Shown piece after piece: positions 666 through 19,147 of a stretch of 64,000 bases of DNA. Numbering within the stretch: position 1 is the first letter of the stretch; the number at the start of each line of letters is the position of its first letter. The DNA is from Phreatobacter sp. (lineage in GTDB: Bacteria > Pseudomonadota > Alphaproteobacteria > Rhizobiales > Phreatobacteraceae), in the NCBI RefSeq assembly GCF_022843985.1, contig NZ_JALHMP010000024.1, forward strand, positions 1-64,000, read 5' to 3'. The translations under genes and the position numbers were made by a program. The notes under the pieces were generated by a model. That model did not search any database and was not told the DNA's origin. It saw only the letters and a list, made by a program, of their open reading frames with translations.

Positions 666-1751
666 CTAGATTAGACCTACAATTCTGTTTGATGCGATTT
701 CGCCAAGGCGGAAGAGGGTTTGTCTTTGCGCTGATGCCTGCCGCCAAGCACGCGCAAGATCGGATTCCCATGGTGTTACGATAAGCTCAAACGACCCATC
801 CGTTAGTCGTCGGAACATGACGGCTGTATCAGCATAATCGAATCCGCCTTGGGCTGCCGTTGGCAGGTTCATCCTCTCCATCCGGTTGTTGCCGTGCCAG
901 GTCAATCGCCGATCGCTCCAGACGCGCGTGCCGCTACGGAGGACGGGCTCACCAATCGTTAGATTATGCGGATAGTCATACTGGTCGAACACAAATCCGA
1001 AGAACCGATGGCCCCCGCGCGGCAATTCCAATTGGTTGCTCGATCCGCCCTGAAGGGCCTCACCGTGGACCCACATGGCCGCGTAATCGGCCGGGTTGAT
1101 GGCTCCGTTCGCGATAGCGAGCCTGAACAGGGGCAGCGCGGCAGCGGCGACAGGTGCCGGCGCTGCTACAGGTTGCGCCTCCTGCTCGATCTCGGGCGGC
1201 GGCGGTTGGGCTTGGCGCAGAGCGGTATAGGCTGCGAGCAAGTCGTCGGTGAGAGCGGTCGTTTCAAAACGCGCCTTGTCAAAGGCAGCATCGGCATTGG
1301 CACGAGGAATGCTCTGCTGCACCCATGCCACCTCCGTGTTCACGCTAAAGCCACGGCTCGTAAGGTTCGCCGAGCCGACCAGCGTGCTGCATGTTTGGGG
1401 ATCGCGGCCAAAGACATAAAACTTGGGGTGAAAGGCACGCTGCGGCATAAGCGAACCCTGCGCCAGTCTCTGCGCGCCGGAGACGAAAACTGTGGCGTTC
1501 GCCAGCGCGCGCCAATGCTGCAATGCCTGTGGTTCGGTGAGGCCGAAATCGAACGATGTAACAAGAGTCTTGGGCATCGCCGCGAACGCGGCAGGACCCA
1601 CAGCGTTCGCGACGGCGGACAGCAGTATGTTTGCGCCGCCGAGCGTGACGTAAGCAGAGGCCACGCGAATATCGATCGTCCCCGCCGTGACGATATCGAC
1701 AAGAGCGTTGCGCAAGCTCGCCGGTTCCGCGGCATTCTGGACGATCAGCAT
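666..1751 (-). CDS. PLD-family nuclease-like protein of the methyltransferase operon
   Basis: This 361-residue protein is the last gene of the operon. It contains one phospholipase-D half-motif, HPKFYVF at 108-114 followed by VGSANLTSRG at 125-134 (H108, K110, S127, N129). That arrangement is typical of restriction-associated PLD nucleases (NgoFVII and DrmC-like), which dimerise to build one active site. The C-terminal half beyond a Pro/Ala-rich linker (about 180-205) is unassigned. The ATG at 1749-1751 overlaps the upstream methyltransferase stop by 7 bp (ATGCTGA), so translation is probably coupled. Inference: it is the effector of a DNA-modification defence system. It could instead be a structural PLD-fold protein, since only one HKD-type motif is present. 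Confidence 0.75.
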   Translation of the reverse strand: MLIVQNAAEPASLRNALVDIVTAGTIDIRVASAYVTLGGANILLSAVANAVGPAAFAAMPKTLVTSFDFGLTEPQALQHWRALANATVFVSGAQRLAQGSLMPQRAFHPKFYVFGRDPQTCSTLVGSANLTSRGFSVNTEVAWVQQSIPRANADAAFDKARFETTALTDDLLAAYTALRQAQPPPPEIEQEAQPVAAPAPVAAAALPLFRLAIANGAINPADYAAMWVHGEALQGGSSNQLELPRGGHRFFGFVFDQYDYPHNLTIGEPVLRSGTRVWSDRRLTWHGNNRMERMNLPTAAQGGFDYADTAVMFRRLTDGSFELIVTPWESDLARAWRQASAQRQTLFRLGEIASNRIVGLI

Positions 1752-4700: not shown

Positions 4701-5011
4701 TCCTGCACCTGCGCGTAGCCGGTGTCGCGCTTGGCCGTGTTGCGCAGGTCGGATTCGTATTCGATCGTGGTCGATCCCACGAGATTGTCTATGAACCGGG
4801 ACGCGGCCTTGCCCGATCCCGTGCCGACCTTGGTATGCGCCTCGGTCCCTTCGGTGTAGTTGTTGATCCAGGTTTCATGCGCGGTGTCGGGAAACATGAG
4901 CCGCAGCCGCCCCTGGAACTCGCTGCGCAGGACCGCCTCGACACGGCCCGCGTCCCGCAGCATGCGGCAGCGACCGATGGTTTCACGAATGCGGGCAATG
5001 TCAGCTGTCAT
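1745..5011 (-). CDS. Large N6-adenine DNA methyltransferase
   Basis: A 1088-residue protein. Motif I is VDMCCGSGTML near residue 384-395 and catalytic motif IV is SNPPW near residue 600, the order of gamma-class N6-adenine methyltransferases. The N-terminal roughly 350 residues are unassigned and could carry a helical targeting region. Upstream in-frame ATGs exist to 5194, but ATG 5011 (MTADIARIRET) is preferred because it overlaps the previous stop by 11 bp (ATGACAGCTGA). Its size recalls PglX or type IIG/type I HsdM-like enzymes. No type IIG-like endonuclease motif was recognised at its ends, and no BREX partner genes are present. It probably methylates adenine using S-adenosylmethionine. 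Confidence 0.85.
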   Translation of the reverse strand: MTADIARIRETIGRCRMLRDAGRVEAVLRSEFQGRLRLMFPDTAHETWINNYTEGTEAHTKVGTGSGKAASRFIDNLVGSTTIEYESDLRNTAKRDTGYAQVQEQAAGLVRAGMPVSMVRGVLSDTVEWYAYDAVLAPAVNSSACTAADITLVVVDELTLADDSVRSAEQLGAFIRKHLAREQSRPLRAEFLASDLGMDSAAYKSSAGPLSLLVNEGRKADPSASLATDLWSRFVDHLEGPAGTFRTAAFVDEAYVTLLARLLSANVLTGKALLSTDDELKAMLNGAFFRNNFQLENVVEQDYFGWLLGPSYIDRLVAVARDLQRDLYAYDFSWYPEEDLFGRLMAQLARRSQRKLLGQEWTPHWLARLLADRCIDGLPAGEIPRIVDMCCGSGTMLAEIIKATRDRFGFAAIEQLEDVATGFDIDPLAVSLAKATWVVSLSAEIKAATKPIVIPVYHADSLFAVTPVSASVPLVGESDTIPVSLDGTTIQLPTALVQPAYREFFDRIVDWAYDEARDAQRRGTVAGFSKADADSFLDGTIEAFGITLPPDLRKQLSGALFPLAHRMAELAVAGRNGIWAFILRNTYRPGLLTGHFNGLVSNPPWLAMSGLADNPYRDLLKGRAKLYGIQPAGQSFLHLELGTMHLLHAIDRYLGPDACVACLVPGTVLNGDHHERLRRHDFLASDRPVPFDIAEVWQVAPGTFKYPGAALVGYKRADTTGLPQNAFAGFVATDAGLDAAGFSVRTIGSARSAWVLEKGGGAAVASGGADLPQQGADLMPRTAVCVDIVQNAGPEYRVDTPTRASAWGFTIKSAKEMATERFPGHVAPRFIYRMAQSENLLPFVLGAHRAPMALPALRAAGGTWSILDESEIRRQGFTQTARRFAAINQKLKTVGKGKTLQQRIDERGKLSKQVFGAAGHLILAGAGGKIICAACLPVARALDLVVDQTLYWKVVADADEAWYQVGMLNSVALTNATLAFNPKGDFGERHLHTLPYRMMPAYDAGNGDHRKIAALAKDIAVLAEGHCTTDPYLADPAKALTARRRKLRALLEGSPLLVQLETLARSALAGTSTASTGGTGSGAQAPAC

Positions 5012-7130
5012 GAACGGTCCTTTGACGGGCGGCACACGCGGCCTCGAGTCGGGAGTCGATATGACGCGCCGCCGCTTTGAGGTCGTGTTCATCGCTGCCG
5101 GGCAACGCAGCGGCCAGGATGAACATGTCGATCTCGTGCCGGGTTGACGGCACGGCCGCGGCCAGCTGCTGTCCGAGCGTGGCGATTCTCTCACAGTCCC
5201 GTTCGGACAATGGCGGAATCGGCACCTGGCGAATGTGCGTTGCTTCTAGCTTTAGCGCGCCGCCGCCAAGCGGCGTGCCGACAGATTCCATCGCTGCCCG
5301 GCACCAACTGCTGTGGAACAGGGCGTAAAGTGCGTGAGCTGTCCATTTCCTCTCTTCCGCCCACAGGGTCGAAAAATTGGCATCGATCAGGATTGGCGGC
5401 TGGGTATTGAGCGCGACGACCGGTGTCCCGTGATTGATCCGCGGCGTGAAGATCACGGGGAGGTGGCGCGCGGTGAAGGCTGGCAACATGTACCAGAAGC
5501 GCGGAACGTCGCGGCCGTTGGCCGGCCGGCGGACATTGGTGCGTACCGCCGACAGGTCGGGAATGAATCGCGCTGGCTCTTTGGGGTCCAGCGCATACCG
5601 GGCGGCGAGCCGCACGAACGATGCCAGCTCGGGCGGCATGACGCGCGGCACGAACATGCCCTGCCTGCGGTAAGCTTCCGCCGCTTCAATGACGGCCGGC
5701 ATGTCTTCCGGCAGGACCCAGTCCGACAGATCGAGCACGCGTGTTACCGGAAGGTAGCCGCTTGCAAAGGCCTCCATATCCGCCTGGCGGTGGAGAACGG
5801 GCCGCAGCGCCGCCGCCGGAACGCGGAAACGCATGTTCTGAAAGCTCTCCGACGCTTCGACGGTAACGGTTTCGTTCTCATCCTCACCAACAAGCGTCAC
5901 ATAGAAAAACCGGTTGCAACCCGAACGCAGGCCCTGGCTGACCCGGATGCCCGCCCGTTGAAGCGTCTGGAGACGCGCCGGCGCCGCGCCGGGCGGCAGC
6001 ATGTCGCGCAATCCTTCCGGCATCGCCGCCGGCCTTGCCTCCCCGACTGAAAAAAGCGGCAGCGCGTCGCGCCGGTTTTCGGCGTTCTGAAACCAGCTCT
6101 TGCGTCCAAGGCGCTGCTCCAGCGTTCGCCATTCCTCATCCAGCGCAAACGGGCGGCTCTCGATGCCCGGAACCTCCCGGTTCGCCGCGCGCGCCCAGGT
6201 TGCGAAATCCCGCTCCGGTTCCGGCCCGGGGAAGGCACTCCCCACCAGGGACTCTCCGCCCGCCGCCGCCGGCGCTACTTGCAGCCAGTGTGCGGCCGAC
6301 AATGACAGCCGACCCGACACGGGGGTTTGGGCCTCGTCCCATGAGAGCCGCCGCGCGATCAAAAGGTGAGTGCGCACCAGCGCGTCCGAAAACCAGCCCG
6401 GCTGCGTATCGGCGACGATGTATTCAAGGCAAAACGCGCGCAGCAGCAGGTAGCGCACGACATCGGCGTAGTCGCGCGAGCGCCAGGTGGCGGGAACGAC
6501 CATGGCTAGGCGGCCGCCCGGACGCGTCAGCAGGGCGGACAGGAGCCAGGCCGGCACCGAAAGATCGGCAAGGCCCGAATATCCTTCAACCAGCGCCTGC
6601 CAGAGCGCGCATTCGCCGCCGGCCACGCGCGCGTCCACGATCGTGGACAGGCCCCGGCGCACGTCATCGACACCGGCACCGTTCCCGTTTTGCGACTGGT
6701 ATCTCACATACGGGGGATTGGTAATGACAAGATCGTAGCCGGACGCGTCCAGCGCAGCGACGATTGCTGGATCAAAGGCGCTGCCCGTGACAATGCGGGC
6801 AGCGGCGACGGCACCGTCCGCCTTCAACGCCGCGGTCCTACGGCCGCAGAAGGCGGACGTCTCAGGGTCGAGCTCAATGCCGTCCAGCCGGCCGAGCCGG
6901 GCACCTCGCGCCCGCGCCGTCAATGCGGCCGCGTCGAGTAGGTCGCCGTGACCGGCCATGGGATCGATCACGGCGCGCGCATCGGGGGCGAGCGCGATGT
7001 GCGCCAGCAGTGTCCCCAGCGGCAATCCGGTGAAGAACTGCCCGAGGCGCTTCCGCTGGGCAGGCGGCAGGCCTTCCTCGAAGGAGCGCGCCGAGGACCT
7101 GATCGCGCTGACCGCGTCAGTCGCCGGCAC
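5001..7130 (-). CDS. Eco57I/N6-adenine-type DNA methyltransferase
   Basis: This is the second methyltransferase of the operon, about 709 residues. It shows RLGQFFTG (motif X-like), DPMAGHGDLL (motif I) and LVITNPPYVRYQ (motif IV NPPY), all within the first 150 residues, as in Eco57I-type and type I HsdM-like adenine methyltransferases. The C-terminal 350 residues resemble the target-recognition part of such enzymes by position only. The start is uncertain: ATGs lie at 7181 and 7163, but the GTG at 7128-7130 has a GGGAG ribosome site 9 nt upstream and gives only a 14-bp overlap with the preceding gene. It overlaps the next methyltransferase by 11 bp. Confidence 0.85.
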   Translation of the reverse strand: MPATDAVSAIRSSARSFEEGLPPAQRKRLGQFFTGLPLGTLLAHIALAPDARAVIDPMAGHGDLLDAAALTARARGARLGRLDGIELDPETSAFCGRRTAALKADGAVAAARIVTGSAFDPAIVAALDASGYDLVITNPPYVRYQSQNGNGAGVDDVRRGLSTIVDARVAGGECALWQALVEGYSGLADLSVPAWLLSALLTRPGGRLAMVVPATWRSRDYADVVRYLLLRAFCLEYIVADTQPGWFSDALVRTHLLIARRLSWDEAQTPVSGRLSLSAAHWLQVAPAAAGGESLVGSAFPGPEPERDFATWARAANREVPGIESRPFALDEEWRTLEQRLGRKSWFQNAENRRDALPLFSVGEARPAAMPEGLRDMLPPGAAPARLQTLQRAGIRVSQGLRSGCNRFFYVTLVGEDENETVTVEASESFQNMRFRVPAAALRPVLHRQADMEAFASGYLPVTRVLDLSDWVLPEDMPAVIEAAEAYRRQGMFVPRVMPPELASFVRLAARYALDPKEPARFIPDLSAVRTNVRRPANGRDVPRFWYMLPAFTARHLPVIFTPRINHGTPVVALNTQPPILIDANFSTLWAEERKWTAHALYALFHSSWCRAAMESVGTPLGGGALKLEATHIRQVPIPPLSERDCERIATLGQQLAAAVPSTRHEIDMFILAAALPGSDEHDLKAAARHIDSRLEAACAARQRTVHDS

Positions 7131-8994
7131 TGCATAAAACTCCCGGCGGCATTTGCTCTGCATACCAGCGATAGAAGACATCAGCGTCGAGCGGGACTTG
7201 CTGATGATGGCTGAGGAAATGCGTTACGAGGCGGGAATACAGCCTCTGCGCCGTCGCTTCGGCCGGATCATGCGCGGCGGTCGCCGCGCGGTGAAGGGCC
7301 GTCGCGACGGTCCATACACAGTCGTCCGCCCCGGCCTTGCTTTCGATCCGGGCCTCGGCCTTGCGGCGCGGCCCCAACAGGAGCACGGGGTCGCCGCGCA
7401 CGGCCCCTTCGGTCGTGACCTGCTTGAAGCTGCCCTGCTTCTTGTCGAGAACCCCCGCATATTCCACGTCGAAGCCGGCATCCTGGTAGGCGCGCTGCAA
7501 GGCGTTCCAGACTTCGGCGGACGCGGAATGAAAAACCATCGTGGCTTTGCCGGACGGTTTCAATATCCGGCGGGCCTCGCTGAACGACCGGGTCAGTAAT
7601 TCCCTATACTCGTCGATGGCCTTGCCCTGGTCCGGGCTCACGATGGCTTCGTCCGTGCGGTCGGTAAACGTCTTGAGCCAGGCCTCGTTTATGAAACTGA
7701 GTTCGGCATAGGGTATGTTCGCCCCGAAGGGCGGGTCCGTGAACACATAGTCGATGCTCCCGGATGGCAGCGCGACATCGCAACTGGAACCGTGGACAAC
7801 TTCGACCTTGCCGCTGCCGCCGTGAATGGTCTCGAACGCCTGCGCAATCGTCGTCAGCTTGCGCCGCAATCCTGCAAAAAAGTTCTTCTCGACCGGCAGG
7901 CCGCTGACATACAGCACGCCGGGCTGGGCGCTGGTGACAACTAGGTCCTTTTGACCGGACTTCGCCACGACGCGCGTCATGATCGTCCCGTGCGCCGCGT
8001 TGTAGCTCAGCAGCCAGAAGCGTAGCCCCTCGCGGAGCGCGCCGCGATAGGATTCCACGCGTTCCCACATGCGGGCGAAAACGATGAGATTACGCCGCGT
8101 GTAGAAATGGTGAACATGCGTAACGCCCTGATGGTAGCCTTTCCGGTAGAGGTCGCCCCAAGGGATCAGCGCTTGCGGCACGCATGACGGGATCGGCTCG
8201 GCCTCGATCTTCTTGATAAGCGTTAGGTCGGCAGCTGTGGCCGGACGCGACCAGCGTTTTTTTCCGGTCGAACCATAGACGCGGGCCATCGTCCGCCCAC
8301 GCAGGGCGCGCTGTTCACCCAATACGTCGTCACGTTCCTGCACCGTCACCCGCGGCACACCGTCCAGCGGCTCTTGATGGCCGCATTTCGGGCAAGAGAA
8401 GGTGGAGGAAATCTCTGCCGGATCGAGCGCGACACACGCATCCCACAGGGTGACGACACCCCGGCAAGCAGGGCAGTGCAGCTTGTCGCTCCAGATCAGA
8501 TGACGAAGGGAGCCTTTCGCACCGGAGGGGTCGCGCGCCTCGTACATCCAGCCGTCTTCGCTCTCGCCTGCGGCCAACACGTCTTCGGCCGCCTTCCTGA
8601 ACGCGGCGGGATCGGGCGGATGGGTCAGGGTCCGGCCGACAAATGAGCCAAGAGCACCCAGCTCATATAGAATGGCATTTCGTGCGCCCCATTGCACGTC
8701 CAGCCCAAGACGTGTCGCTTCGGCGCGCATGTCGTCCGTCGGTCGCCCACAAAGCAAAGCAGCAAGGCCGGTCGTCCCACTGCCGCCAAACCCATCAAAA
8801 ACGGTATCACCCGGCGCGGTGTGGGCCGCTATATAAAGCGCAACCGCTTCAGGCGATATCTTTGTCGGATAAGGAAATGCATTAAATAATGCGCCGCCAC
8901 GCCGTGATTCCAAAGGCTTTCTATACAACGCATCAACAATCGCACTTCTCATTGATGAGGTGCCTTTCGACTTCGGAGTGCGCGCGTATTTCAT
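7117..8994 (-). CDS. DNA methyltransferase with zinc ribbon
   Basis: A 625-residue protein and the first large gene of the operon. Motif I is FDGFGGSGTT at 66-75 and catalytic motif DPPF is at 420-423 in TDPPFGANIPY. The DPPF tetrad and FxGxG-type loop fit N4-cytosine/N6-adenine methyltransferases. About 350 residues are inserted between the two motifs, including a four-cysteine zinc ribbon (C174, C177, C201, C204) that may read DNA. The ATG at 8994 has GAGG six nt upstream. It starts 27 bp after the ribbon-helix-helix gene, so the two are probably co-transcribed. The methylated base cannot be told from sequence. Confidence 0.85.
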   Translation of the reverse strand: MKYARTPKSKGTSSMRSAIVDALYRKPLESRRGGALFNAFPYPTKISPEAVALYIAAHTAPGDTVFDGFGGSGTTGLAALLCGRPTDDMRAEATRLGLDVQWGARNAILYELGALGSFVGRTLTHPPDPAAFRKAAEDVLAAGESEDGWMYEARDPSGAKGSLRHLIWSDKLHCPACRGVVTLWDACVALDPAEISSTFSCPKCGHQEPLDGVPRVTVQERDDVLGEQRALRGRTMARVYGSTGKKRWSRPATAADLTLIKKIEAEPIPSCVPQALIPWGDLYRKGYHQGVTHVHHFYTRRNLIVFARMWERVESYRGALREGLRFWLLSYNAAHGTIMTRVVAKSGQKDLVVTSAQPGVLYVSGLPVEKNFFAGLRRKLTTIAQAFETIHGGSGKVEVVHGSSCDVALPSGSIDYVFTDPPFGANIPYAELSFINEAWLKTFTDRTDEAIVSPDQGKAIDEYRELLTRSFSEARRILKPSGKATMVFHSASAEVWNALQRAYQDAGFDVEYAGVLDKKQGSFKQVTTEGAVRGDPVLLLGPRRKAEARIESKAGADDCVWTVATALHRAATAAHDPAEATAQRLYSRLVTHFLSHHQQVPLDADVFYRWYAEQMPPGVLCSAGD

Positions 8995-9367: not shown

Positions 9368-9787
9368 TTATCTTTGGCCGCCCAGTTCGCCCAAAAAAGA
9401 CTCCTGTTTTGCCCACTCCACCGGGAACGGCACCAGCAGGTCGTCCAGCTGCAATCCCGGCGGCTGCCGCCCGTCGAGGATCGCCTCGACGATGTCCGGC
9501 GCGAGCAGTGTGAGGCGCAGGACACGGGCGATGTAGGACGGGTTGATCTTCTCGGCCTCGGCAAGGTCCTGGACGGTCTGGAAGCGGCCACTGTCGAGCT
9601 GCTTCTTCCAGCGATGGGCGCGGGCCAGCGCCTTGACCATGGTGTTGTCGATGCGGGCGCGCGGCAGCGCCCACGCATCGGCCCCGTTCGGTGCGATGAC
9701 GAGCTTGCGGCCTCCGCGCTTCCGGAATGTCATCGGCACGGTGACGGTGAGCGCACCCGCATCGTGGAGGAGAGCGCCCTTCGCCAT
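9368..9787 (-). CDS. HTH protein encoded downstream of the serine recombinase
   Basis: A 139-residue protein. Residues 72-105 (VQDLAEAEKINPSYIARVLRL...) look like a ParB/KorB-type helix-turn-helix; the N-terminal half is unassigned. ATG 9787 shares one base with the recombinase stop (TGATG), so the two are translationally coupled. Small HTH proteins of this sort follow large serine recombinases in alphaproteobacterial elements and may act as a directionality or regulatory factor. That role is inferred from position. Confidence 0.7.
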   Translation of the reverse strand: MAKGALLHDAGALTVTVPMTFRKRGGRKLVIAPNGADAWALPRARIDNTMVKALARAHRWKKQLDSGRFQTVQDLAEAEKINPSYIARVLRLTLLAPDIVEAILDGRQPPGLQLDDLLVPFPVEWAKQESFLGELGGQR

Positions 9788-11127
9788 CAGGCCGCGTCCT
9801 TTCGGTCGGGGAAGGTCTGCAGTTCGCCCAGCAGCTTGGTCAGCCCGCCGGTGCGGAGGCGGATCGCAATGCCGTCGACCTTCACGTCGACCCGTTCGAC
9901 CAGAAGCTGGACGATGCGCGCCTGCTCGGCGGGGAACAACTCGTCCCACATGGGATCGAGCCGCTCGAAGGTGTCGCGAACCTCGGCCTCGGTGATGCGA
10001 TCGTCGTGCCTTGTCGCGGCCATCCATGTCCGCACGATCAGTTCCGGCGCGCGCAGGAAGCCGCGAAGCTGCTCGATGACCGCCGTCTCGATCTCGGCGG
10101 CAGGAACCCGGCCCACCGGGCATGTTCCCGGTCCGCGCTTCAAGACCGACTGCGTGACATAGTAGCGGTAGAGCCGATCGCCCTTCCGGGTGTGGCTCGG
10201 CGACATCGCGTCTCCATTCGGCGAGAAGATCAGGCCTCGCAGCAGGGACGGCCCCGACAGTCGGGTCTGGTTGGCGCGCATGCGCGGGCTCTCGCCCATG
10301 ATGGCGTGAGCGCGCCGCCAGAGATCGGTGCTGATGATGGCCTCGTGCTCGCCGGGATAGGCTTCGCCCTTGTGGACGGCCTCGCCGATATAGACCCGGT
10401 TGTTGAGCAGCTTGTAGAGCGCGCCCTTGTCGAGCATGTAGCCGCGCCTGCTGCGGATTCCGGCCGCTTGCAGTTCCCCCATCAGCAGCTTGATCGATCC
10501 GAGCTTCACGAAGCGCTCGAAGATCAGACGCACGGATGCCGCCTCTTCCTCGTTGACGAGCAGCTTGCGGTTCTCGACGCGGTAGCCGAGCGGCACGTAG
10601 CCGCCCATCCACATGCCTTTCCGGCGCGAGGCTGCGACCTTGTCGCGGATGCGCTCGCCGATGACCTCGCGCTCGAACTGGGCGAAGGACAGGAGGATGT
10701 TGAGCGTCAGCCGCCCCATCGACGTCGTCGTGTTGAAGGACTGCGTGACGCTGACGAAAGTGACGCCGCGCCGCTCGAACACCTCAACCAGCTTGGCGAA
10801 GTCCATGAGCGACCGCGACAGGCGGTCGATCTTGTAGACGACGACCACATCGATCTTGCCGAACTCGATGTCGGCGATGAGCCGCTTCAGCGCCGGACGC
10901 TCCAGCGTGCCGCCGGAGATCCCGCCATCGTCATAACGGTCGGCGACCGCAACCCAACCCTCCGGCTTCTGGCTCAGGATATAGGCGGAACAGGCCTCGC
11001 GCTGCGCGTCGAGGCTGTTGAACTCCATGTCGAGCCCTTCCTCGGACGATTTGCGGGTGTAGATCGCGCAGCGGACCTTCGGCGTGATCTTCGTCGTCGG
11101 CGGGCTCGGGGACGTTGCGCGCCTCAT
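9787..11127 (-). CDS. Large serine recombinase (site-specific integrase/resolvase family)
   Basis: A 446-residue protein. The N-terminal resolvase domain begins AIYTRKSSEEGLDM, with the likely catalytic serine at residue 26-27, and carries the conserved YDDGGISGGTLERPAL and KIDRLSRS signatures. A recombinase domain follows (GYVPLGYRVENRKLLVNEEEA...), and then a C-terminal zinc-ribbon-like region. This is the architecture of large serine integrases that recombine attP and attB without host factors. ATG 11127 overlaps the DUF2924-like stop (ATGA). It may be the integrase of the adjacent prophage or of a separate cassette. No core attachment sequence was identified. Confidence 0.92.
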   Translation of the reverse strand: MRRATSPSPPTTKITPKVRCAIYTRKSSEEGLDMEFNSLDAQREACSAYILSQKPEGWVAVADRYDDGGISGGTLERPALKRLIADIEFGKIDVVVVYKIDRLSRSLMDFAKLVEVFERRGVTFVSVTQSFNTTTSMGRLTLNILLSFAQFEREVIGERIRDKVAASRRKGMWMGGYVPLGYRVENRKLLVNEEEAASVRLIFERFVKLGSIKLLMGELQAAGIRSRRGYMLDKGALYKLLNNRVYIGEAVHKGEAYPGEHEAIISTDLWRRAHAIMGESPRMRANQTRLSGPSLLRGLIFSPNGDAMSPSHTRKGDRLYRYYVTQSVLKRGPGTCPVGRVPAAEIETAVIEQLRGFLRAPELIVRTWMAATRHDDRITEAEVRDTFERLDPMWDELFPAEQARIVQLLVERVDVKVDGIAIRLRTGGLTKLLGELQTFPDRKDAA

Positions 11128-11570
11128 GTGCCGCGCCCCGCGTTCTTCAGCCCGAAGAACACCCAGCCGTTCCACTGCACGCCGGTGATCGCGCGCGCGA
11201 TCGCGGACAGCGACCGGTAGGGGCGGCCCTGGTATTCGTAGCCGTCGACCGTGACCGTCACGATGTGCTCGACGCCATGGAACTCGCGCAGCAGCCGTGT
11301 GCCGGCAACCGGCTTGCGGTCAGTCCGAATCCGCCGCGTCTTGGGGTTGGTGTCTTCGACGCCGCGCGCGAGCGCATCCAGCCGCTTCACCGTCTCGGGC
11401 TTGAGCCCGCCATAGGCGAGTTCCTGGATGCGGTAGGCCAGACGGCTTTCGAGGAAGCGCCGGTTGTACGGCGGTGCTTCAGTGCCATGCAGATCGCGCC
11501 ACATCGTCTTCAAGGCGGGCGTGGGCATGGTCTTGATGGCGGCGACGCGCGCCAGCACGGGATCGTTCAT
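11124..11570 (-). CDS. DUF2924-like protein
   Basis: A 148-residue protein starting MNDPVLARVAAIKTMPTP. It has the sequence character of DUF2924 proteins, including MWRDLHGTEAPPYNRRFLESRLAYRIQELAYGG and a C-terminal VDGYEYQGRPYRSLSAIARAITG...WNGWVFFGLK segment. That last segment resembles the RAMA-type small DNA-related domain. Such proteins are nearly always next to serine recombinases in alphaproteobacteria, but the biochemical role is unknown. It is linked by 4-bp ATGA overlaps to both neighbours. Confidence 0.8.
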   Translation of the reverse strand: MNDPVLARVAAIKTMPTPALKTMWRDLHGTEAPPYNRRFLESRLAYRIQELAYGGLKPETVKRLDALARGVEDTNPKTRRIRTDRKPVAGTRLLREFHGVEHIVTVTVDGYEYQGRPYRSLSAIARAITGVQWNGWVFFGLKNAGRGT

Positions 11571-11812
11571 GGGCGGTCTCCGCCGAGTTGCGTGTCCGCA
11601 TGACGGCGTCGGTCGGCGGTGAAGTCCACCGAACTGTCTCCGCACTCGCGAGATAAAGGTGTGGGTCGTCCCTCCCGCCGCTGCCGAAGCCGGACGATGC
11701 CGCGCGCGAGGATCTCGGCGGCTTCATCGAGCCGCTCGGCATCGCTCATCAGTTCGGGGCGCAAGGCGTTGGGGCCAGTCTCCGCGCAGTGGGGATCGAA
11801 AGCGTTTCGCAT
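11567..11812 (-). CDS. Small hypothetical protein, first gene of the recombinase operon
   Basis: An 81-residue protein (MRNAFDPHCAETGPNAL...). It contains one probable helix, SDAERLDEAAEILARGIVRLRQRRE, and a polar C-terminus. ATG 11812 is chosen over an in-frame start six codons upstream because the run-up is short either way. Its stop overlaps the DUF2924-like start (ATGA). Proteins of this size and composition commonly sit in front of DUF2924 genes; no function is known. Confidence 0.6.
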   Translation of the reverse strand: MRNAFDPHCAETGPNALRPELMSDAERLDEAAEILARGIVRLRQRREGRPTPLSRECGDSSVDFTADRRRHADTQLGGDRP

Positions 11813-12083
11813 GAGTGAAACGCTAGGCATTGATCATAATAAAACAAGCAAAATCAGATGGTTATCTAACTTCTGCAAAGCAGGTCGAAATCATTCATAT
11901 TGCTTCGCAACTGTTGATTCCATCGGCGCGGGTATCGCAGACTTCCAAGCAACCTCTTCCCGGCGAATCAGTCCTGCAGTTGTTCATCTGCAGGGCAGGT
12001 TTCACCGGAGCCCCAAAATGCAAACGCAGACTTACAGGAATGAGAGACTGATCGACCAATAGAGCTGCTCGAAAGATGATGGA
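11813..12083. other. AT-richer divergent intergenic region
   Basis: This 271-bp stretch lies between the leftward recombinase operon and the rightward QueC-like operon. The first about 120 bp (TGATCATAATAAAACAAG... onward) is clearly more AT-rich than the surroundings, as expected for divergent promoters or acquired DNA. TGATCA is a small palindrome at 11831-11836. I could not identify a confident promoter pair or an attachment site. Confidence 0.45.
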
Positions 12084-12872
12084 ATGGGGCATCAGCGCCT
12101 TGGGAAACTACCAGCATTCAAGATGCTGCCAGATATCATCAAGTATCTGGTGTCCGGCGGAACACCGACCGCCGAGCTGGTCAACCAGGTGACCGAGTTC
12201 GGTCGCGATGCACTCAAGGCAGCCCTGAATGACAAGGTGTTTATCGAGGCGCTCTGGCTTCTGATCAGCCTGCCGCAGGCAGCAGCCGCAAAGAACAGCG
12301 CGGAATCCTTGGCAACGATCGGGGTAAGGGATCCAAATCTATCAAGCGTGTCAGACGTCCTCGTTGCATATGATCAATGCCTCGAAAGAGCTCAACGTAG
12401 TCACCATTCACATTCGACGGATCTCGGCGAGATCGCCCGGCAGGCTGGCCTTTCCGCCTTGGGAGAGGCCCTGAGTAATTCATTGCCCTCGCTCTGGGCT
12501 CCAACTGCGAACGACATCCGTACATCCTTGGCTGCGTTGAAGGGAACAGAGCAATTTTCAGCGCTTGCACACGGCTTTTACTCAAAATTTGTAGAGAGGG
12601 TGATCCATTACTACGTTGATCGCAATTTGCACAAAATGGTCGGCGCTGAGCGCGTTGCGCGGTCTGTTCACGATCTGCGCGCCTTCAACGAATCTATCCG
12701 GCGTCACTGTGACGAGGCAGCGCTTATCATGCGGGCATTCTCCAGAGATTGGCTGGGCAAGAACCATTACAAGGACGGCAAGCAGATATCGAAGGACGAC
12801 GTGAAGCGCTTCTCCGCCCATGCGGTCGACAAGATCCGTATCGAACTCGATATCAGGAAGGGGGCACAGTGA
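12084..12872 (+). CDS. Helical protein of unknown function paired with the QueC-like enzyme
   Basis: A protein of up to 262 residues, predicted mostly alpha-helical, with no signal peptide or transmembrane segment and no recognised motif. Features visible are a His-rich patch (RSHHSHS, near 105-111) and a basic C-terminus (KDGKQISKDDVKRFSAHAVDKIRIELDIRKG). The start may be ATG 12084 or ATG 12123 (MLPDIIKYL); neither has a strong ribosome site. Its stop overlaps the GTG of the next gene (GTGA), indicating one transcriptional unit. It occupies the place of a partner protein such as QatB in Qat-type defence systems, but I see no sequence match to QatB. Confidence 0.75.
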   Translation: MGHQRLGKLPAFKMLPDIIKYLVSGGTPTAELVNQVTEFGRDALKAALNDKVFIEALWLLISLPQAAAAKNSAESLATIGVRDPNLSSVSDVLVAYDQCLERAQRSHHSHSTDLGEIARQAGLSALGEALSNSLPSLWAPTANDIRTSLAALKGTEQFSALAHGFYSKFVERVIHYYVDRNLHKMVGAERVARSVHDLRAFNESIRRHCDEAALIMRAFSRDWLGKNHYKDGKQISKDDVKRFSAHAVDKIRIELDIRKGAQ

Positions 12873-14731
12873 AGCGCTTCTCGATCGAGTGCGGCGTCAC
12901 TCGGCCATCGGCCGCTGACGCAATCGCCATGGACGTCCAGGGAGCCGGGAAGAACGTCAACCTGCGTATCGACTACATCAGTAGGACCATGCTCGGAAAC
13001 GTGCCGGATCTGCTGATCGATCTGCTGGAGGTCGCTTCTTACGTCTATTGCGCCGATCAGAGGTTGCGCCGCGGCTCCGACATGCTGACAAACTTCGGAG
13101 AGGATTGGCGCCGAAGCCTCCATTTTTCCATTCCTGTGCGGCAACTCAATGTCTGGCAGGATCCCGATGTTCAGGACCAACTGGCCAAGACCCTCGGGTT
13201 TCTGTCGGACGACAGCTATGAATTCACCTTTCGCCAGGCTGAGGCCCCTGCCCAGCCGAAAGAGTTGTATTTTTCAGACCTCATCGACACGACCTTCGAG
13301 CACGACCAGGTCGCCCTGTTTTCGGGAGGCATCGATTCCTTTGCCGGGACCGCCCACGACATCGTCAAGATGGGGAAGTCCGTCACGCTGGTTGGACACT
13401 ACTCGTCGACGAAAGTTCGTGCCGTTCAAGAGAACCTGATCGAGGGCCTGAGGAAACGAGGATTTGATCGGCAGGTTTCATACATTCCGGTCTGGGTCAG
13501 CAACGAGAATGAGCGGGCCCATGAATTCACGCAACGGACGCGGTCATTTCTGTTCGCTTGCCTCGGCATTGTTGTAGCGAGGATGGCCGGCAAGGACAGA
13601 TTCACGTTTTATGAGAACGGGGTTGTCAGCGTAAATCCGCCGCTGGCGGGGGATGTCGTTGGTGGCCGCGCGACGCGAACCACCCACCCACAAGTGCTGC
13701 GCGGGCTGGAGTCGCTGTTCTCGTTGCTCCTTGACCGCACGATCGAGATACAGACGCCGTTGCAGTGGATGACAAAGCAGGAAGTGACCCGGCTCATATC
13801 TGCGGCTGGCCTTTCAGACATGCTTGCCCAGACAGCAAGTTGCACGCGACCTCGGACGTGGACCAGGAAGCAAAAGCACTGCGGAGTATGTTCTCAGTGC
13901 ATTGATCGTCGTTTCGCAGTGCTGTCGGCAGGGTTGGGTGATCACGAACCGTCTGGAAATTACGCGTGTGATCTGCTTGTTTCGGATCGCAGTGCGGACG
14001 ATGATCTTCGAATGGCGCTGAGTTACGTCGCGTTTTTTCAGAAGATTTCTGCAACCAGCAAGGACAGGTTCGTCGTCGACTTTCCCGAGGTCACGTCTGC
14101 AATTGGCCACTTCCCTGATCTGACTGCGGACGCGGCCAGCTCGAAACTCCATGAAATGTTTCAGCGTCAGGCCAAGGCTGTCGAGGAGGTGATTACCGGC
14201 GCGCTTGTCGAGCATCGAACGGCGCTATTCCGAAACGAGCTTCCCTCCGGATCATTGCTGGCAATGTGCTTCAACCGGAACGGTGTCGTAACCGAGCCTC
14301 CGTCGGGCTATGACGCACAGGTGAAGGCCTTCGTTGATCGGCTCAGCGCGCCTGTTCTCGAATTCGCGGTCGACGAGACCGACGCGCGCATTTTGTTCCA
14401 CGGCGGCGACCGGCTTGATGAAGCGAATTACCGGATCGTTCTGGCACTCATCACCAACTTCCGCTCGGCCAAAGCAACATCAGCAGAGGTTCCATTCATT
14501 CGAGCGCCCGATCTCGCAGCAGTGATGAACATCGATGAGCAGTCCTTGCGCCAGCAGGTAAGCCGCCTCCGAAAGGCAATTGAACCCCTGGCCGTGAATC
14601 TCGGCATCCCGATGGATCAGAACACCTTCATTGAAACCAAGGAGCGCGCGGGCTACCGCATCAATCCCGAATGCCGGGAAATCTCCGTTGCCGACGTACG
14701 CGCGGCAGACCGAGCCGTGCGGCCCGGATAA
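12869..14731 (+). CDS. QueC-like PP-loop enzyme fused to an OmpR-type winged helix
   Basis: A 620-residue protein. Residues 148-160 (VALFSGGIDSFAG) form a PP-loop pyrophosphatase motif SGGxDS. ENGVVSVNPP follows at 249-258, and a zinc site C325, C338, C341, C344 (CGVCSQCIDRR) is as in QueC, which makes 7-cyano-7-deazaguanine. The N-terminal about 140 residues are extra. The C-terminus (546-604) resembles an OmpR/ToxR winged helix: LRQQVSRLRKAIEP, then FIETKERAGYRIN. QueC-like proteins outside queuosine loci occur in antiphage systems (QatC, CBASS-associated Cap9). No other queuosine gene lies nearby, so a defence role is inferred. GTG 12869 is chosen for the GTGA overlap with the upstream gene. 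Confidence 0.85.
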   Translation: MKRFSIECGVTRPSAADAIAMDVQGAGKNVNLRIDYISRTMLGNVPDLLIDLLEVASYVYCADQRLRRGSDMLTNFGEDWRRSLHFSIPVRQLNVWQDPDVQDQLAKTLGFLSDDSYEFTFRQAEAPAQPKELYFSDLIDTTFEHDQVALFSGGIDSFAGTAHDIVKMGKSVTLVGHYSSTKVRAVQENLIEGLRKRGFDRQVSYIPVWVSNENERAHEFTQRTRSFLFACLGIVVARMAGKDRFTFYENGVVSVNPPLAGDVVGGRATRTTHPQVLRGLESLFSLLLDRTIEIQTPLQWMTKQEVTRLISAAGLSDMLAQTASCTRPRTWTRKQKHCGVCSQCIDRRFAVLSAGLGDHEPSGNYACDLLVSDRSADDDLRMALSYVAFFQKISATSKDRFVVDFPEVTSAIGHFPDLTADAASSKLHEMFQRQAKAVEEVITGALVEHRTALFRNELPSGSLLAMCFNRNGVVTEPPSGYDAQVKAFVDRLSAPVLEFAVDETDARILFHGGDRLDEANYRIVLALITNFRSAKATSAEVPFIRAPDLAAVMNIDEQSLRQQVSRLRKAIEPLAVNLGIPMDQNTFIETKERAGYRINPECREISVADVRAADRAVRPG

Positions 14732-14782
14732 CCCGCCGACGTCACAGCCAGTCCCATTCGATGTCACAACTCGTGTCGTGAA

Positions 14783-14804
14783 AGCCCCGGTTTCCGGGGC
14801 TTTT
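14783..14804 (+). terminator. Rho-independent terminator after the QueC-like operon
   Basis: A perfect 8-bp stem AGCCCCGG/CCGGGGCT with a TTT loop is followed by TTTT and lies 52 bp after the stop of the QueC-like gene. It isolates this operon from the rightward prophage genes that start at 14938. Confidence 0.85.
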
Positions 14805-15966: not shown

Positions 15967-16845
15967 ATGGCGCTCCCCATCATCACCGCCGACCAGCGGC
16001 TCGCGGAACCTCGCGGCATCAAGGGCACGATCTTCGGCAAGTCCGGCATCGGCAAGACCTCGCTTCTCTGGACGCTCGATGCCGAGACCACCTTGTTCAT
16101 GGACCTCGAGGCGGGTGACCTCGCCATCGAGGGATGGCCCGGCGACACGGTGCGGCCGCGCACCTGGCCCGAATGCCGCGACTTCGCCGTGTTCATCGGC
16201 GGGCCGAACCCGGCCCTGCGCGACGACCAGGCCTACAGCCCCGCGCATTTCGCGGCGGTCTGCGAACGCTTCGGCGATCCCGGTGTCATGGATCGCTACC
16301 GGACGGTGTTCATCGACTCGATCACGGTCGCCGGCCGGCTGTGTTTCCAGTGGTGCAAGGGCCAGCCCGACGCCTTCTCCGAGAAGACCGGCAAGCCCGA
16401 CATTCGCGGCGCCTACGGCCTGCATGGCCGCGAGATGATCGCGTGGCTCACGCACCTCCAGCACACAAGGGCGAAGAACGTCTGGTTCGTCGGCATCCTC
16501 GACGAGAAGCTGGACGACTTCAACCGGCGCATCTTCCAGCCGCAGATCGACGGTTCGAAGACCGGTCTCGAACTGCCCGGCATCGTCGATGAAGTGCTGA
16601 CGATGGCGGAGATCAAGGACGATGCGGGCACGCCCTATCGCGCCTTCGTCTGCCACACGATCAATCCGTGGGGCTTTCCCGCCAAGGACCGGTCAGGGCG
16701 TCTGTCGCCCGTCGAAGAGCCGCATCTTGGTCGGCTGATGACGAAGATCCGCGGCCCCGTGAAGCCCGCCGCCGAGCGTCTCGCGTTCAGCCGGCCGGAC
16801 GCCGCGAACGCTACCACTGACATCACCCATCCCGAAAACGCCTGA
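15967..16845 (+). CDS. Sak4-like RecA-family ATPase
   Basis: A 292-residue protein with Walker A GKSGIGKTS at 24-32 and a following LFMDLEAGD that fits the phage nucleotide-binding (AAA_24/Sak4) family. Such proteins promote single-strand annealing or strand exchange in phage recombination. A possible Walker B is VFIDSITVAG around 112-121. The next gene looks like an ssDNA-binding protein, the usual partner of Sak4. It acts in the cytoplasm on phage DNA. Confidence 0.85.
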   Translation: MALPIITADQRLAEPRGIKGTIFGKSGIGKTSLLWTLDAETTLFMDLEAGDLAIEGWPGDTVRPRTWPECRDFAVFIGGPNPALRDDQAYSPAHFAAVCERFGDPGVMDRYRTVFIDSITVAGRLCFQWCKGQPDAFSEKTGKPDIRGAYGLHGREMIAWLTHLQHTRAKNVWFVGILDEKLDDFNRRIFQPQIDGSKTGLELPGIVDEVLTMAEIKDDAGTPYRAFVCHTINPWGFPAKDRSGRLSPVEEPHLGRLMTKIRGPVKPAAERLAFSRPDAANATTDITHPENA

Positions 16846-16861
16846 AGAGGAGCAACCAGCC

Positions 16862-17443
16862 ATGTCTGGAACCTGGAACGACTTCAACGACGCCAAGCAG
16901 AACAGCAACATCATCCCGAAGGGCACGCTGGCCAAGGTGCGCCTCACCATCCGCCCGGGCGGCTTCGACGATCCGGCTCAGGGCTGGACCGGAGGCTACG
17001 CGACACGCGGCACGACTGGTTCGGTCTATCTGTCCGGCGAGTTCACCGTGCTCGAAGGGCCCTATGCGCGGCGCAAGATCTTCACGCTGATCGGGCTCTA
17101 CAGCCCGAAGGGTCCAGACTGGGCCAACATGGGCCGCAGCCTGATCCGCGGCATGCTGAATTCCGCTCGCGGCATTTCCGACAAGGATTCCTCGGCTCAG
17201 GCGCAGGCGGCGCGCCGCATCAACGGTTTCGCCGATCTCGACGGCCTGGAGTTCGTGGCCCGCATCGATGTCGGGACCGACACCAACGGCGAGGAGAAGA
17301 ACGAGATCCGCGCCGCCGTCACGCCGGATCACAAGGAATACGCGCCGCTGGCGGGCGCAGCGGCAAGGGCGACGGCTACGCAGCGGCAACCCGCGCAGGC
17401 TTCGATGCCCCAGCCGGGCATCCGTCCCTCATGGGCGCAGTGA
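16862..17443 (+). CDS. Phage single-stranded DNA-binding-like protein
   Basis: A 193-residue protein (MSGTWNDFNDAKQNSNIIPKGTLAKVRLTIRPGG...). It is beta-rich in the first 100 residues (YLSGEFTVLEGPYARRKIFTLIGLYSP) and ends in a flexible Ala/Gln/Pro-rich tail finishing PSWAQ. An OB-type core with a disordered tail suits an ssDNA-binding protein, and its position after the Sak4-like gene supports that. Assignment is by context and overall character, not by a clear motif. Confidence 0.65.
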   Translation: MSGTWNDFNDAKQNSNIIPKGTLAKVRLTIRPGGFDDPAQGWTGGYATRGTTGSVYLSGEFTVLEGPYARRKIFTLIGLYSPKGPDWANMGRSLIRGMLNSARGISDKDSSAQAQAARRINGFADLDGLEFVARIDVGTDTNGEEKNEIRAAVTPDHKEYAPLAGAAARATATQRQPAQASMPQPGIRPSWAQ

Positions 17444-17455
17444 GGGCCGCTACCC

Positions 17456-19147
17456 ATGCTGCTGCGACCCCGCCAGAAACTGTTCGTCGAGCGAAGCGTC
17501 AGCGCGCTTTCGCAATACGGCAACACGCTCGCCGTGGCCCCGACCGGGGCCGGCAAGACGATCATGCTCTCGGCTGTCGCGGGGCGCATGATCGCCGATC
17601 CCGACGCCAAGGCCTGCGTGCTCGCCCATCGCGACGAACTCACTGACCAGAACCGTGACAAGTTCCGCCGCGTCGTGCCCGGTCTCTCCACGTCCGTCGT
17701 CGATGCGCGCGAGAAGTCCTGGAAGGGACAGGTGACCTTCGCGATGGTGCCAACGCTGGCGCGCTCCGGTAATCTCGATGGGATGCCGACGCTCGATCTT
17801 CTGGTGATCGACGAGGCGCATCATGCGGCGGCCGACAGCTATCGCCGGATCATTGACCAGGCGCTGAAGAGCAATCCCGCCTGCGGGATCTACGGGGTCA
17901 CGGCTACGCCCAACCGGGGCGACAAGCGCGGCCTTCGCGCCGTCTTTTCGAATGTCGCGGATCAGATCCGCATCGGCGAACTGATCGCCTCCGGCCATCT
18001 CGTGCCGCCGCGCACCTTCGTCATCGACGTCGGTGTTCAGGAGCAGCTCACCAAGGTGCGGCGCACCGCCGATGACTTCGACATGAGCGAAGTCGATGCG
18101 ATCATGAACCGGACTCCGGTGACCGATGCCGTCATTCGGCAATGGCGGGAAAAGGCCGGAAACCGGCAGACGGTCGTTTTCTGCTCCACCGTCGATCATG
18201 CCCGCAATGTCGCCCGGGCATTCAATGGCGCGGGCATTCCTGCCGGGCTTGTCCATGGCGAAATGCCGGATGCCGAGCGCAGGTCCGTGCTCGCGGCCTA
18301 TGCGGCAGGCGATCTTCGCGTGGTGGTCAACGTCGCGGTTCTGACCGAGGGCTGGGATCATCCCCCCACGAGCTGCGTCGTCCTCCTGAGGCCGAGTTCC
18401 TACAAGTCGACGATGATCCAGATGATCGGCCGCGGACTGCGCACGGTCTCGCTGGATGAACATCCCGGTGTTCTGAAGACCGACTGCATTGTCCTCGATT
18501 TCGGCACGTCGACGCTGCTTCACGGATCGCTCGAACAGGACGTTGACCTGAACGGTCGCGAGTCCACTGGCGAGGCCCCGACGAAGGACTGTCCGGAATG
18601 CGGCGCAGTGGTGCCGCTCGCCACCACCGAGTGTCCGCTTTGCGGCCACCATTGGGAACGGGATGAGACCGGCGAGGCTACGCCGCTCGGCGAATTCGTG
18701 ATGTCGGAGATCGACCTCCTGAAGCGGTCGAGTTTCCGGTGGTGCGATCTTTTCGGCGACGATGCCGCGCTCATCGCCAGCGGCTTCAATGCCTGGGGCG
18801 GGGTCTTCTTTCTCAATGGCCGCTGGTACGGCATCGGCGGGGTGCAGAAGCAGCGGCCCCATCTGCTGGCGGCCGGCGAACGCACGGTCTGTCTCGCTGC
18901 GGCCGATGACTGGCTGAACGAGCATGAGAGCGACGAGAGCGCCCACAAGACAAGGCGGTGGCTGAACCAGCCGCCGACCGACAAGCAGCTCTCGTTCCTC
19001 CCGCCCGAGTACCGGCAGGATTTCGGGCTCACGCGCTACCAGGCATCGGCGCTCCTGGCGTTCCGCTTCAACCGCGATGCCATTCGCTCGCTCGTCTTCG
19101 GCGCAGCGGACGCCGCCCCCGCTGACCTGATCGGGAGGGCTGCGTGA
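17456..19147 (+). CDS. DEAD/DEAH-type superfamily 2 helicase with zinc ribbon
   Basis: A 563-residue protein. Motif I APTGAGKTI (near 26-34), motif II DEAH (LVIDEAHHAA), motif III TATPNRGDKRG, and a C-terminal helicase domain with TEGWDHPPTSCVV and QMIGRGLRT are all visible. A zinc ribbon CPECGAVVPLATTECPLCGHHW follows (near 380-400). The domain order matches phage and host RadD/UvsW-like helicases, which remodel forks or R-loops. It begins 12 bp after the SSB-like gene. Its likely role is phage replication-recombination; a polarity cannot be read from sequence. Confidence 0.88.
   Translation: MLLRPRQKLFVERSVSALSQYGNTLAVAPTGAGKTIMLSAVAGRMIADPDAKACVLAHRDELTDQNRDKFRRVVPGLSTSVVDAREKSWKGQVTFAMVPTLARSGNLDGMPTLDLLVIDEAHHAAADSYRRIIDQALKSNPACGIYGVTATPNRGDKRGLRAVFSNVADQIRIGELIASGHLVPPRTFVIDVGVQEQLTKVRRTADDFDMSEVDAIMNRTPVTDAVIRQWREKAGNRQTVVFCSTVDHARNVARAFNGAGIPAGLVHGEMPDAERRSVLAAYAAGDLRVVVNVAVLTEGWDHPPTSCVVLLRPSSYKSTMIQMIGRGLRTVSLDEHPGVLKTDCIVLDFGTSTLLHGSLEQDVDLNGRESTGEAPTKDCPECGAVVPLATTECPLCGHHWERDETGEATPLGEFVMSEIDLLKRSSFRWCDLFGDDAALIASGFNAWGGVFFLNGRWYGIGGVQKQRPHLLAAGERTVCLAAADDWLNEHESDESAHKTRRWLNQPPTDKQLSFLPPEYRQDFGLTRYQASALLAFRFNRDAIRSLVFGAADAAPADLIGRAA

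What the first reader, a model, noticed from the sequence alone, without database searches (positions are those of the whole stretch)
12084..14731. QueC-like enzyme with zinc site fused to an OmpR-like winged helix, paired with an unknown protein
Seen: SGGIDS, ENG...NPP, a four-cysteine zinc site and a C-terminal RLRKAIEP...GYRIN segment in one 620-residue protein, coupled by GTGA to an unknown 262-residue gene and closed by a terminator. Known: QueC-like proteins take part in Qat and some CBASS antiphage systems. Inference: this is a two-gene, DNA-sensing variant in which the winged helix could act as the sensor. No queuosine-pathway partners are visible.
Basis: partly seen in the sequence, partly recalled or inferred. 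Interest (0 to 1): 0.8.

Follow-up and report, generated by a model that had tools for sequence, protein, structure and literature searches.

The report
Two-gene prophage cousin of Qat defence
A prophage carries a compact two-gene relative of the bacterial Qat anti-phage system, in which one enzyme probably chemically tags the tip of its partner protein; the enzyme also carries a swappable tail, here a DNA-binding-like domain.

Summary
In detail: ORF1 (12084-12872, 262 aa) and ORF2 (12869-14731, GTG start, 620 aa) overlap by 4 nt and end at a strong terminator. The "unknown" partner is the new result: its AlphaFold model has QatB as best match among 350,542 PDB chains (Foldseek probability 0.98; others shown at most 0.25), although E is only 0.15. 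ORF2 is QatC-like and keeps the QatC substrate-site signature TRTTHP, which the host's true QueC lacks. Sixty-two other loci, 55 of them viral contigs and one a Leptospira plasmid, hold the pair; no QatA or QatD was found in the fetched flanks. ORF1 nearly always begins MGHxxLG, its most conserved stretch, and resembles the N-terminal glycine shown to be tagged in type IV CBASS and proposed to be tagged in QatB. The ORF2 tail is modular: an OmpR-like winged helix in most, a DpnII/MboI-type nuclease in Leptospira. Related prophages carry GmrSD or Abi genes in the same slot. Best reading: a stand-alone, prophage-borne QatB/QatC-type defence switch. Defence, the chemistry and DNA sensing by the winged helix are untested. 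New variant of a known kind.

The parts
12084..12872 (+). ORF1, QatB-like helical protein, 262 aa, N-terminus MGHQRLGKLP
   Evidence: AF2 model pLDDT 86.7, pTM 0.88; best PDB match QatB 9y01_A, prob 0.98, TM 0.43/0.50, E 0.15; no Pfam, NCBIfam or PADLOC match at E up to 1; 60 of 64 rows (two of them the window itself) start [MVL]G[HN], the other four explained
12084..12113 (+). N-terminal decapeptide of ORF1 (MGHQRLGKLP), proposed modification site with Gly2 as acceptor
   Evidence: most conserved 10-residue window in 47 non-redundant rows; DNA conservation begins at the start codon in 21 close relatives
12869..14731 (+). ORF2, QatC-like protein with C-terminal extension, 620 aa, GTG start
   Evidence: PADLOC QatC E 3.7e-56; NCBIfam QatC 212.4 bits, below its cut-off 280; Foldseek QatC 9y01_B E 8e-21, TM by target 0.78
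13322..13339 (+). SGGIDS ATP-pyrophosphatase loop (residues 152-157)
   Evidence: S, G, G, D and S identical in 51 of 51 ORF2 sequences and 13 of 13 QatC
13673..13690 (+). TRTTHP, QatC-type substrate-site signature (residues 269-274)
   Evidence: same residues in QatC (second-last Thr 11 of 13), different in the host's QueC
13841..13900 (+). four-cysteine zinc-type site C325, C338, C341, C344
   Evidence: 51 of 51
14351..14683 (+). probable OmpR-like winged-helix module (residues 495-605)
   Evidence: model secondary structure; tail profile against the PDB; Pfam Trans_reg_C above cut-off in relatives L077, L078, L081, whose tails align only weakly with this one
14781..14804 (+). intrinsic terminator hairpin with T tract
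9787..11645 (-). serine recombinase (9787-11175) and phrog_11806 gene (11124-11645) bounding the cargo slot on the left
15967..19147 (+). Sak4-like, phrog_2300 and helicase genes bounding the slot on the right; structural phage genes follow from 28273

Best explanation
The pair is a stand-alone, prophage-carried relative of the QatB-QatC core of the Qat anti-phage system. Shown here by computation: ORF2 has the QatC fold and substrate-site residues, ORF1 resembles QatB in fold, the two genes travel together in many phage contigs with no qatA or qatD found in the fetched flanks, and the extreme N-terminus of ORF1 is its most conserved part. Inferred: the proteins form a complex; ORF2 uses ATP to activate a carboxylated small molecule and joins it to Gly2 of ORF1 after removal of the start Met, as Cap9 does to the CD-NTase in type IV CBASS and as is proposed for QatB; the modified complex stops a superinfecting phage. 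The C-terminal module (winged helix here, DpnII/MboI-type nuclease in Leptospira) would take the place of QatA/QatD as the part that touches nucleic acid, either by locating the complex on DNA or by switching it on.
For: QatC is the only PDB match of the ORF2 profile at E up to 0.01 and the best fold match; TRTTHP is kept as in QatC and not as in the host's QueC. ORF1's best fold match is QatB, prob 0.98, others among the 50 shown of 600 at most 0.25; best shown in the viral library 0.28. Profile score of ORF1 against 11 QatB 27.6, against at most 19.9 in 120 column shuffles. N-terminal conservation. Pair present on a Leptospira plasmid and in 55 viral-contig rows. Slot holds GmrSD and Abi genes in related prophages. 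Literature: QatBC alone protects against lambda; QatB G2D and QatC S156A/S161A or T278A/T280A abolish protection (PMC13279940, Results read).
Against: No QatB model recognises ORF1; the Foldseek E-value is 0.15 and TM 0.43/0.50. hhalign's own probability for ORF1 against 11 QatB is 7.7, and an unrelated control (the ORF2 profile) scores 24.6, not far below 27.6. The motif is MGH, not MGTS, and the long disordered QatB tail is missing. NCBIfam's QatC cut-off is not reached. No phage assay or chemistry was possible, and QatC itself could not be reconstituted in vitro (PMC13279940). Prophage location would also fit lifestyle control. No QueE was found in the host genome, so the donor molecule is uncertain.
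Confidence: 0.62

Rival explanations
1. A DNA-sensing two-gene defence system: the winged helix recognises invading DNA and triggers the enzyme.
For: Winged-helix-like tail in 50 of 71 ORF2 rows by pattern; three nearly invariant arginines fall in the third helix of the model.
Against: The tail is swapped for a nuclease-type or unassigned domain in other members; nothing shows which DNA is bound or when.
Confidence: 0.2
2. A prophage regulator: the winged helix controls the pair's own promoter or lysogeny genes, and the enzyme modifies the partner as a switch of phage lifestyle rather than defence.
For: Location next to the recombinase; an imperfect inverted repeat at 11966-12001 upstream of ORF1 (not tested against chance).
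Against: Slot contents vary and include Abi and GmrSD genes; lower GC3 of the pair than of its neighbours suggests cargo; a relative is on a Leptospira plasmid; upstream DNA is not conserved in 21 close relatives.
Confidence: 0.13
3. A phage-encoded QueC feeding 7-deazaguanine into phage DNA or tRNA.
For: QueC fold and zinc-type site.
Against: QueC substrate residues are replaced by the QatC set; conserved protein partner; QatC fails to restore queuosine in a queC mutant (PMC13329287, section 7 read).
Confidence: 0.03

Closest known systems
QatB-QatC core of the qatABCD anti-phage system
   Same: Adjacent overlapping genes; QatC fold and substrate-site residues; helical partner with a QatB-like fold and N-terminal Met-Gly; QatBC alone suffices for some defence (PMC13279940)
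   Different: QatA and QatD in 0 of 70 pair loci (many short flanks); tip MGHxRLGxLP instead of MGTS, and no long disordered tail; extra C-terminal modules; separate group in a tree of the shared part (51 of 51 together, support 0.87); shorter cysteine spacing (12 against 19 residues) and longer R-to-WxR spacing (11 against 7) than the QatC motifs of PMC13329287
Type IV CBASS Cap9 with CD-NTase
   Same: QueC-like enzyme paired with a protein bearing an N-terminal glycine
   Different: ORF1 is not a CD-NTase by family search; substrate residues are of the QatC, not the Cap9, type; Cap10 was not searched for
QueC, 7-cyano-7-deazaguanine synthase
   Same: PP-loop ATPase fold, zinc-type cysteines
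   Different: Substrate residues, partner and size; the host has a separate QueC on another contig
OmpR/PhoB-type winged helix (Trans_reg_C)
   Same: Order of strands, helices and wing; GYRxNP ending
   Different: Below Pfam cut-off in the window protein; fused to a PP-loop enzyme rather than a receiver domain

Membership tests
QatC | reaches NCBIfam NF041925 equivalog cut-off | tested here: not met
   212.4 bits against 280
QatC | ATP loop, RxR, ENG, TxTxHP, P(x)4TK, four Cys and RR | tested here: met
   51 ORF2 and 13 QatC sequences (T269 is Ser in 6 of 51; P297 kept in 46 of 51); cysteine spacing is shorter
QatC | QatC fold with N- and C-terminal extensions | tested here: met
   Foldseek 9y01_B TM by target 0.78, E 8e-21
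QatB | match to a QatB sequence model | tested here: not met
   no match at E up to 1 in PADLOC or NCBIfam
QatB | QatB helical fold | tested here: inconclusive
   best of 350,542 chains, prob 0.98, but E 0.15 and TM 0.43/0.50; hhalign prob 7.7
QatB | N-terminal MGTS on a disordered tail | tested here: not met
   Met-Gly kept, then His; no secondary structure before residue 15 and low confidence only in residues 1-10 (mean pLDDT 54)
qatABCD system | qatA ATPase and qatD nuclease in the operon | tested here: not met
   tblastn with QatA and QatD of L020: 0 of 70 pair loci; the same queries found QatA in L021, L022, L024 and QatD in L021-L024
Qat-type defence | protection against phage | not testable with these tools
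   needs plaque assays
Type IV CBASS | CD-NTase partner | tested here: not met
   ORF1 has no such family match; best fold match is QatB
canonical QueC | QueC substrate residues | tested here: not met
canonical QueC | queuosine operon | tested here: inconclusive
   QueC and QueD matches lie on other contigs, no QueE match; QueF and Tgt not searched, flanks of relatives not searched for them
OmpR-type winged helix | Pfam Trans_reg_C cut-off | tested here: not met
   17.2 of 26.2 bits on the window tail; met in L077, L078, L081
OmpR-type winged helix | strand-helix-wing order | tested here: met
   predicted secondary structure; the tail was not compared as a separate fold

The most novel reading that the evidence does not exclude
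A self-contained immune switch built on QatB/QatC chemistry: enzyme, substrate and nucleic-acid module in two genes, with tails (winged helix, DpnII/MboI-type nuclease, others) exchanged between lineages as sensors or effectors, so that N-terminal tagging of the partner directly controls a fused module. That would make Qat-like defence a modular family of which qatABCD is one branch.
Probability: 0.35. Interest if true: 0.8.

Novelty: new variant of a known kind. Interest (0 to 1): 0.62.

Why it matters
The reaction of QatC, and how modified QatB stops phages, are named as open questions in PMC13279940. A natural two-gene version would support QatB-QatC as the functional core, pins the likely substrate to a short conserved N-terminal tip that can be followed by mass spectrometry, and offers tails with recognisable domains (a nuclease type in one lineage) that hint at what the complex acts on. 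It also places a Qat-like pair in temperate phages.

Tried and rejected
Family libraries gave nothing for ORF1. Profile comparison with QatB: 4 QatB rows gave hhalign probability 37 over columns 60-153, 11 rows only 7.7, and the two runs align different parts. The score of 27.6 beats 120 column shuffles and a reversed profile (14.6), but shuffles destroy helix periodicity and the ORF2 profile used as a control scores 24.6 over 37 columns. So the fold match, not the profile, carries the QatB claim.

The two winged-helix tail types align only weakly (hhalign prob 8.0). Of 36 tails, 14 match Trans_reg_C, 16 Sigma70_r4_2 and 13 HTH_11 at E up to 1. The best Pfam match of the window tail is PG_binding_4, below its cut-off.

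Genome-contig scan with ORF2: 1 relative, L001. Phage records with a relative's ORF2: 2 Listeria records over 41% of the query. Plasmids with the window's ORF2: 140 records, 1 covering at least 80%; with a relative's ORF1: 1, the same Leptospira plasmid. The tblastn with QatB is uninformative: it also missed the gene in the QatB position of L024. Donor question left open. Upstream DNA of ORF1 in 21 loci shows no shared operator; no sigma-70-like promoter found.

Rows and choices: ORF1 starts were placed at the motif [MVL]G[HN]..[LIF] where it occurs, and the 47-row conservation set was drawn from the 60 ORF1s that have it, so positions 1-3 are inflated; positions 5-10 are less so. The four of 64 without it are two contig-edge cuts (one of which still shows GHVRLGKLP), one frame break after the motif and one stop at residue 15. 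ORF2 starts were picked nearest to the ORF1 stop, so overlap lengths (63 of 64 overlap, 37 by 4 nt) lean that way. L002 and L026 in that list are the window itself. Seven of the 71 ORF2 rows have no ORF1 called: six begin at or near a contig edge, one (L010) is cut by IS elements.

Full report
OBSERVATION. The two genes are as described: ORF1 12084-12872 and ORF2 12869-14731, overlapping in GTGA. A hairpin and T tract follow (14781-14804; the 46-nt stretch folds at -21 kcal/mol, z -3.8, 0 of 200 shuffles as good). Both genes are under purifying selection (dN/dS 0.10-0.21 against L001 and L034; for L001 only the downstream 249 codons of ORF1 were used).

WHAT ORF2 IS. PADLOC QatC matches with E 3.7e-56 over residues 46-371; NCBIfam QatC scores 212 bits, below its cut-off of 280. 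A profile of 36 ORF2 sequences finds only QatC in the PDB at E up to 0.01 (2 of 2 distinct sequences). The AlphaFold model (pLDDT 86.2, pTM 0.74) matches QatC of the QatB-QatC complex best (9y01_B, E 8e-21, TM 0.78 by target), then QueC and Cap9. QatC uses T278 and T280 where QueC and Cap9 have Tyr and Asp (PMC13279940). I equate these with T269 and T271 from the shared pattern T-R-T-x-H. In an alignment of 51 two-gene ORF2s (window included), 13 classical QatC and the host's QueC, T269 is Thr in 45 of 51 and Ser in 6, T271 is Thr in 51 of 51, both are Thr in 13 of 13 QatC, and the QueC has Asp and Ser there. The 51 form one group in a FastTree (support 0.87); the 13 QatC group with two further genome hits (0.998).

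WHAT ORF1 IS. No family library knows it. The model is a confident helical domain with no secondary structure before residue 15 and low confidence in residues 1-10 (overall pLDDT 86.7, pTM 0.88). The best of 350,542 PDB chains is QatB (9y01_A), Foldseek probability 0.98; the other 49 shown of 600 are at most 0.25; E is 0.15, TM 0.43/0.50. The viral structure library gives nothing comparable (best of 50 shown 0.28). Profile comparison is weak support: 27.6 against at most 19.9 in 120 shuffles, but 24.6 for an unrelated control, and hhalign's own probability is 7.7.

THE N-TERMINUS. Of 64 ORF1 rows (two are the window), 60 start [MVL]G[HN]; the other four are cut by the contig edge (2) or broken in or just after the same motif (2). 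In 47 non-redundant rows M1 and G2 are invariant, H3, L6, G7, L9 and P10 are at 90% or more, and residues 1-10 are the most conserved 10-residue window of the protein (3.45 bits; next separate window 2.87; positions 1-3 partly by selection). Three intact ORF1s found later by genome search and not in that set start MGHIHLG, MGHIRLG and MGHIRLG (L102-L104). Five rows have GTG or TTG at the same place, and in 21 close relatives DNA conservation begins at the start codon, so the motif is very probably the true N-terminus. In type IV CBASS the exposed Gly2 of the CD-NTase is joined to a deazaguanine by the QueC-like Cap9. QatB has MGTS; its G2D mutant and QatC active-site mutants lose protection, and QatBC alone protects against lambda (PMC13279940, Results and Discussion read). 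PMC13329287 (sections 7 and 8 read; passages) lists QatC motifs, reports that QatC does not restore queuosine, and finds qatA and qatD beside about a third of its QatC cluster. Of the type IV CBASS preprint (PMC11996544) I saw only the listing with the start of its abstract.

THE TAIL. After the QatC-like part the model shows helices, a disordered stretch (470-494) and then strands, three helices and a wing. Trans_reg_C is below its cut-off on the window tail (17.2 of 26.2 bits; PG_binding_4 scores 19.1, cut-off 22.1) but above it in L077, L078 and L081, whose tails align only weakly with this one. Of 11 PDB sequences found with a 36-row tail profile at E up to 1, the 8 best are response regulators or transcription regulators (including TcpP), E 0.015-0.2; the other 3 are a designed protein and IFI16. 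By a simple pattern, of 71 ORF2 rows 47 carry this tail, 3 the second winged-helix type, 10 an unassigned type C, and 11 are other, 6 of these cut off. The Leptospira tail matches DpnII-MboI nuclease above cut-off (40.9 bits, cut-off 27).

CONTEXT AND SPREAD. The window holds a prophage: serine recombinase, Sak4, helicase, primase, terminase, portal, capsid and tape-measure genes. The pair lies between the recombinase block and Sak4 and has lower GC3 than the recombinase, phrog_11806, Sak4 and phrog_2300 genes (0.63-0.66 against 0.83-0.87). Viral-contig scans gave 52 loci with ORF2 and 17 with ORF1 relatives, some on the same contigs. Of 70 loci (window included, 7 without a called ORF1), 32 have a recombinase homologue, 33 the phrog_11806 gene, 26 Sak4 and 28 the helicase; 23 of 34 with 3 kb or more upstream have the recombinase; 17 of 70 have none of the ten window genes tested. 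In related prophages (the best 80 of about 600 matches in each of two scans) I found 92 such slots, some of them on the same contig twice; 8 of 92 hold the pair. Of 125 representative cargo ORFs from the others (crude ORF calls, so some are not genes) 101 were scanned: GmrSD_N 2, AbiJ_NTD3 1, Abi_C 1, HNH_2 2, M78/IrrE 6; most are unassigned. ORF1 relatives were found in 5 of 385 genomes of the class, 6 of 397 of the order and 3 of 398 of the phylum, own genome included each time. Some are broken or partial copies with no ORF2 in the fetched stretch (L030/L031, L106, L109). Named hosts: a Methylocystis MAG (L001, ORF1 frame broken) and a Leptospira noguchii plasmid, whose genes overlap by 4 nt as in the window. 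QatA and QatD were found in 0 of the 70 loci.

MECHANISM. Shown by computation: architecture, conservation, fold resemblance. Inferred: complex, ATP-dependent tagging of Gly2, defence, and a nucleic-acid role for the tail. My odds: complex formation about 0.85, N-terminal modification 0.65, defence 0.75, DNA sensing by the tail 0.2.

NOVELTY. Searches for QatC or QueC-like, deazaguanylation with QueC or CBASS, QatB, QueC with winged helix and anti-phage, QueC with defence island, prophage and two-gene, and qatABCD in the held PMC library (listings, and two papers read in part) showed no description of this two-gene form. Subscription papers and bioRxiv preprints are largely not held. It is a new variant of a known kind.

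Noticed in passing
L013 7886-11624 (G000 contig C15, outside the window): A different QueC-like locus in the same genome: 191-aa protein, 462-aa QatC-related protein with an altered ATP loop, XRE/ImmA-like protein and PIN-type protein; a similar gene order is on a Rhizobium plasmid (L025).
   Followed up: partly
window 669-8994 (-): Block of methyltransferase and type IIG-like genes, including a PglXI match, between tRNA-Ser (311-400) and the prophage recombinase.
   Followed up: partly
L069-L071, L073-L076, L080, L082, L098: ORF2 relatives with an unassigned type-C tail; no Pfam match over cut-off in the two scanned, L082 and L069.
   Followed up: partly
slot between the phrog_11806 gene and Sak4 in prophages (92 slots): Variable cargo slot of about 3-7 kb with several known defence genes; a place to look for unknown ones.
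   Followed up: partly
G000 genome: QueC and QueD matches, but none of three QueE models; source of a deazaguanine precursor unclear.
   Followed up: partly
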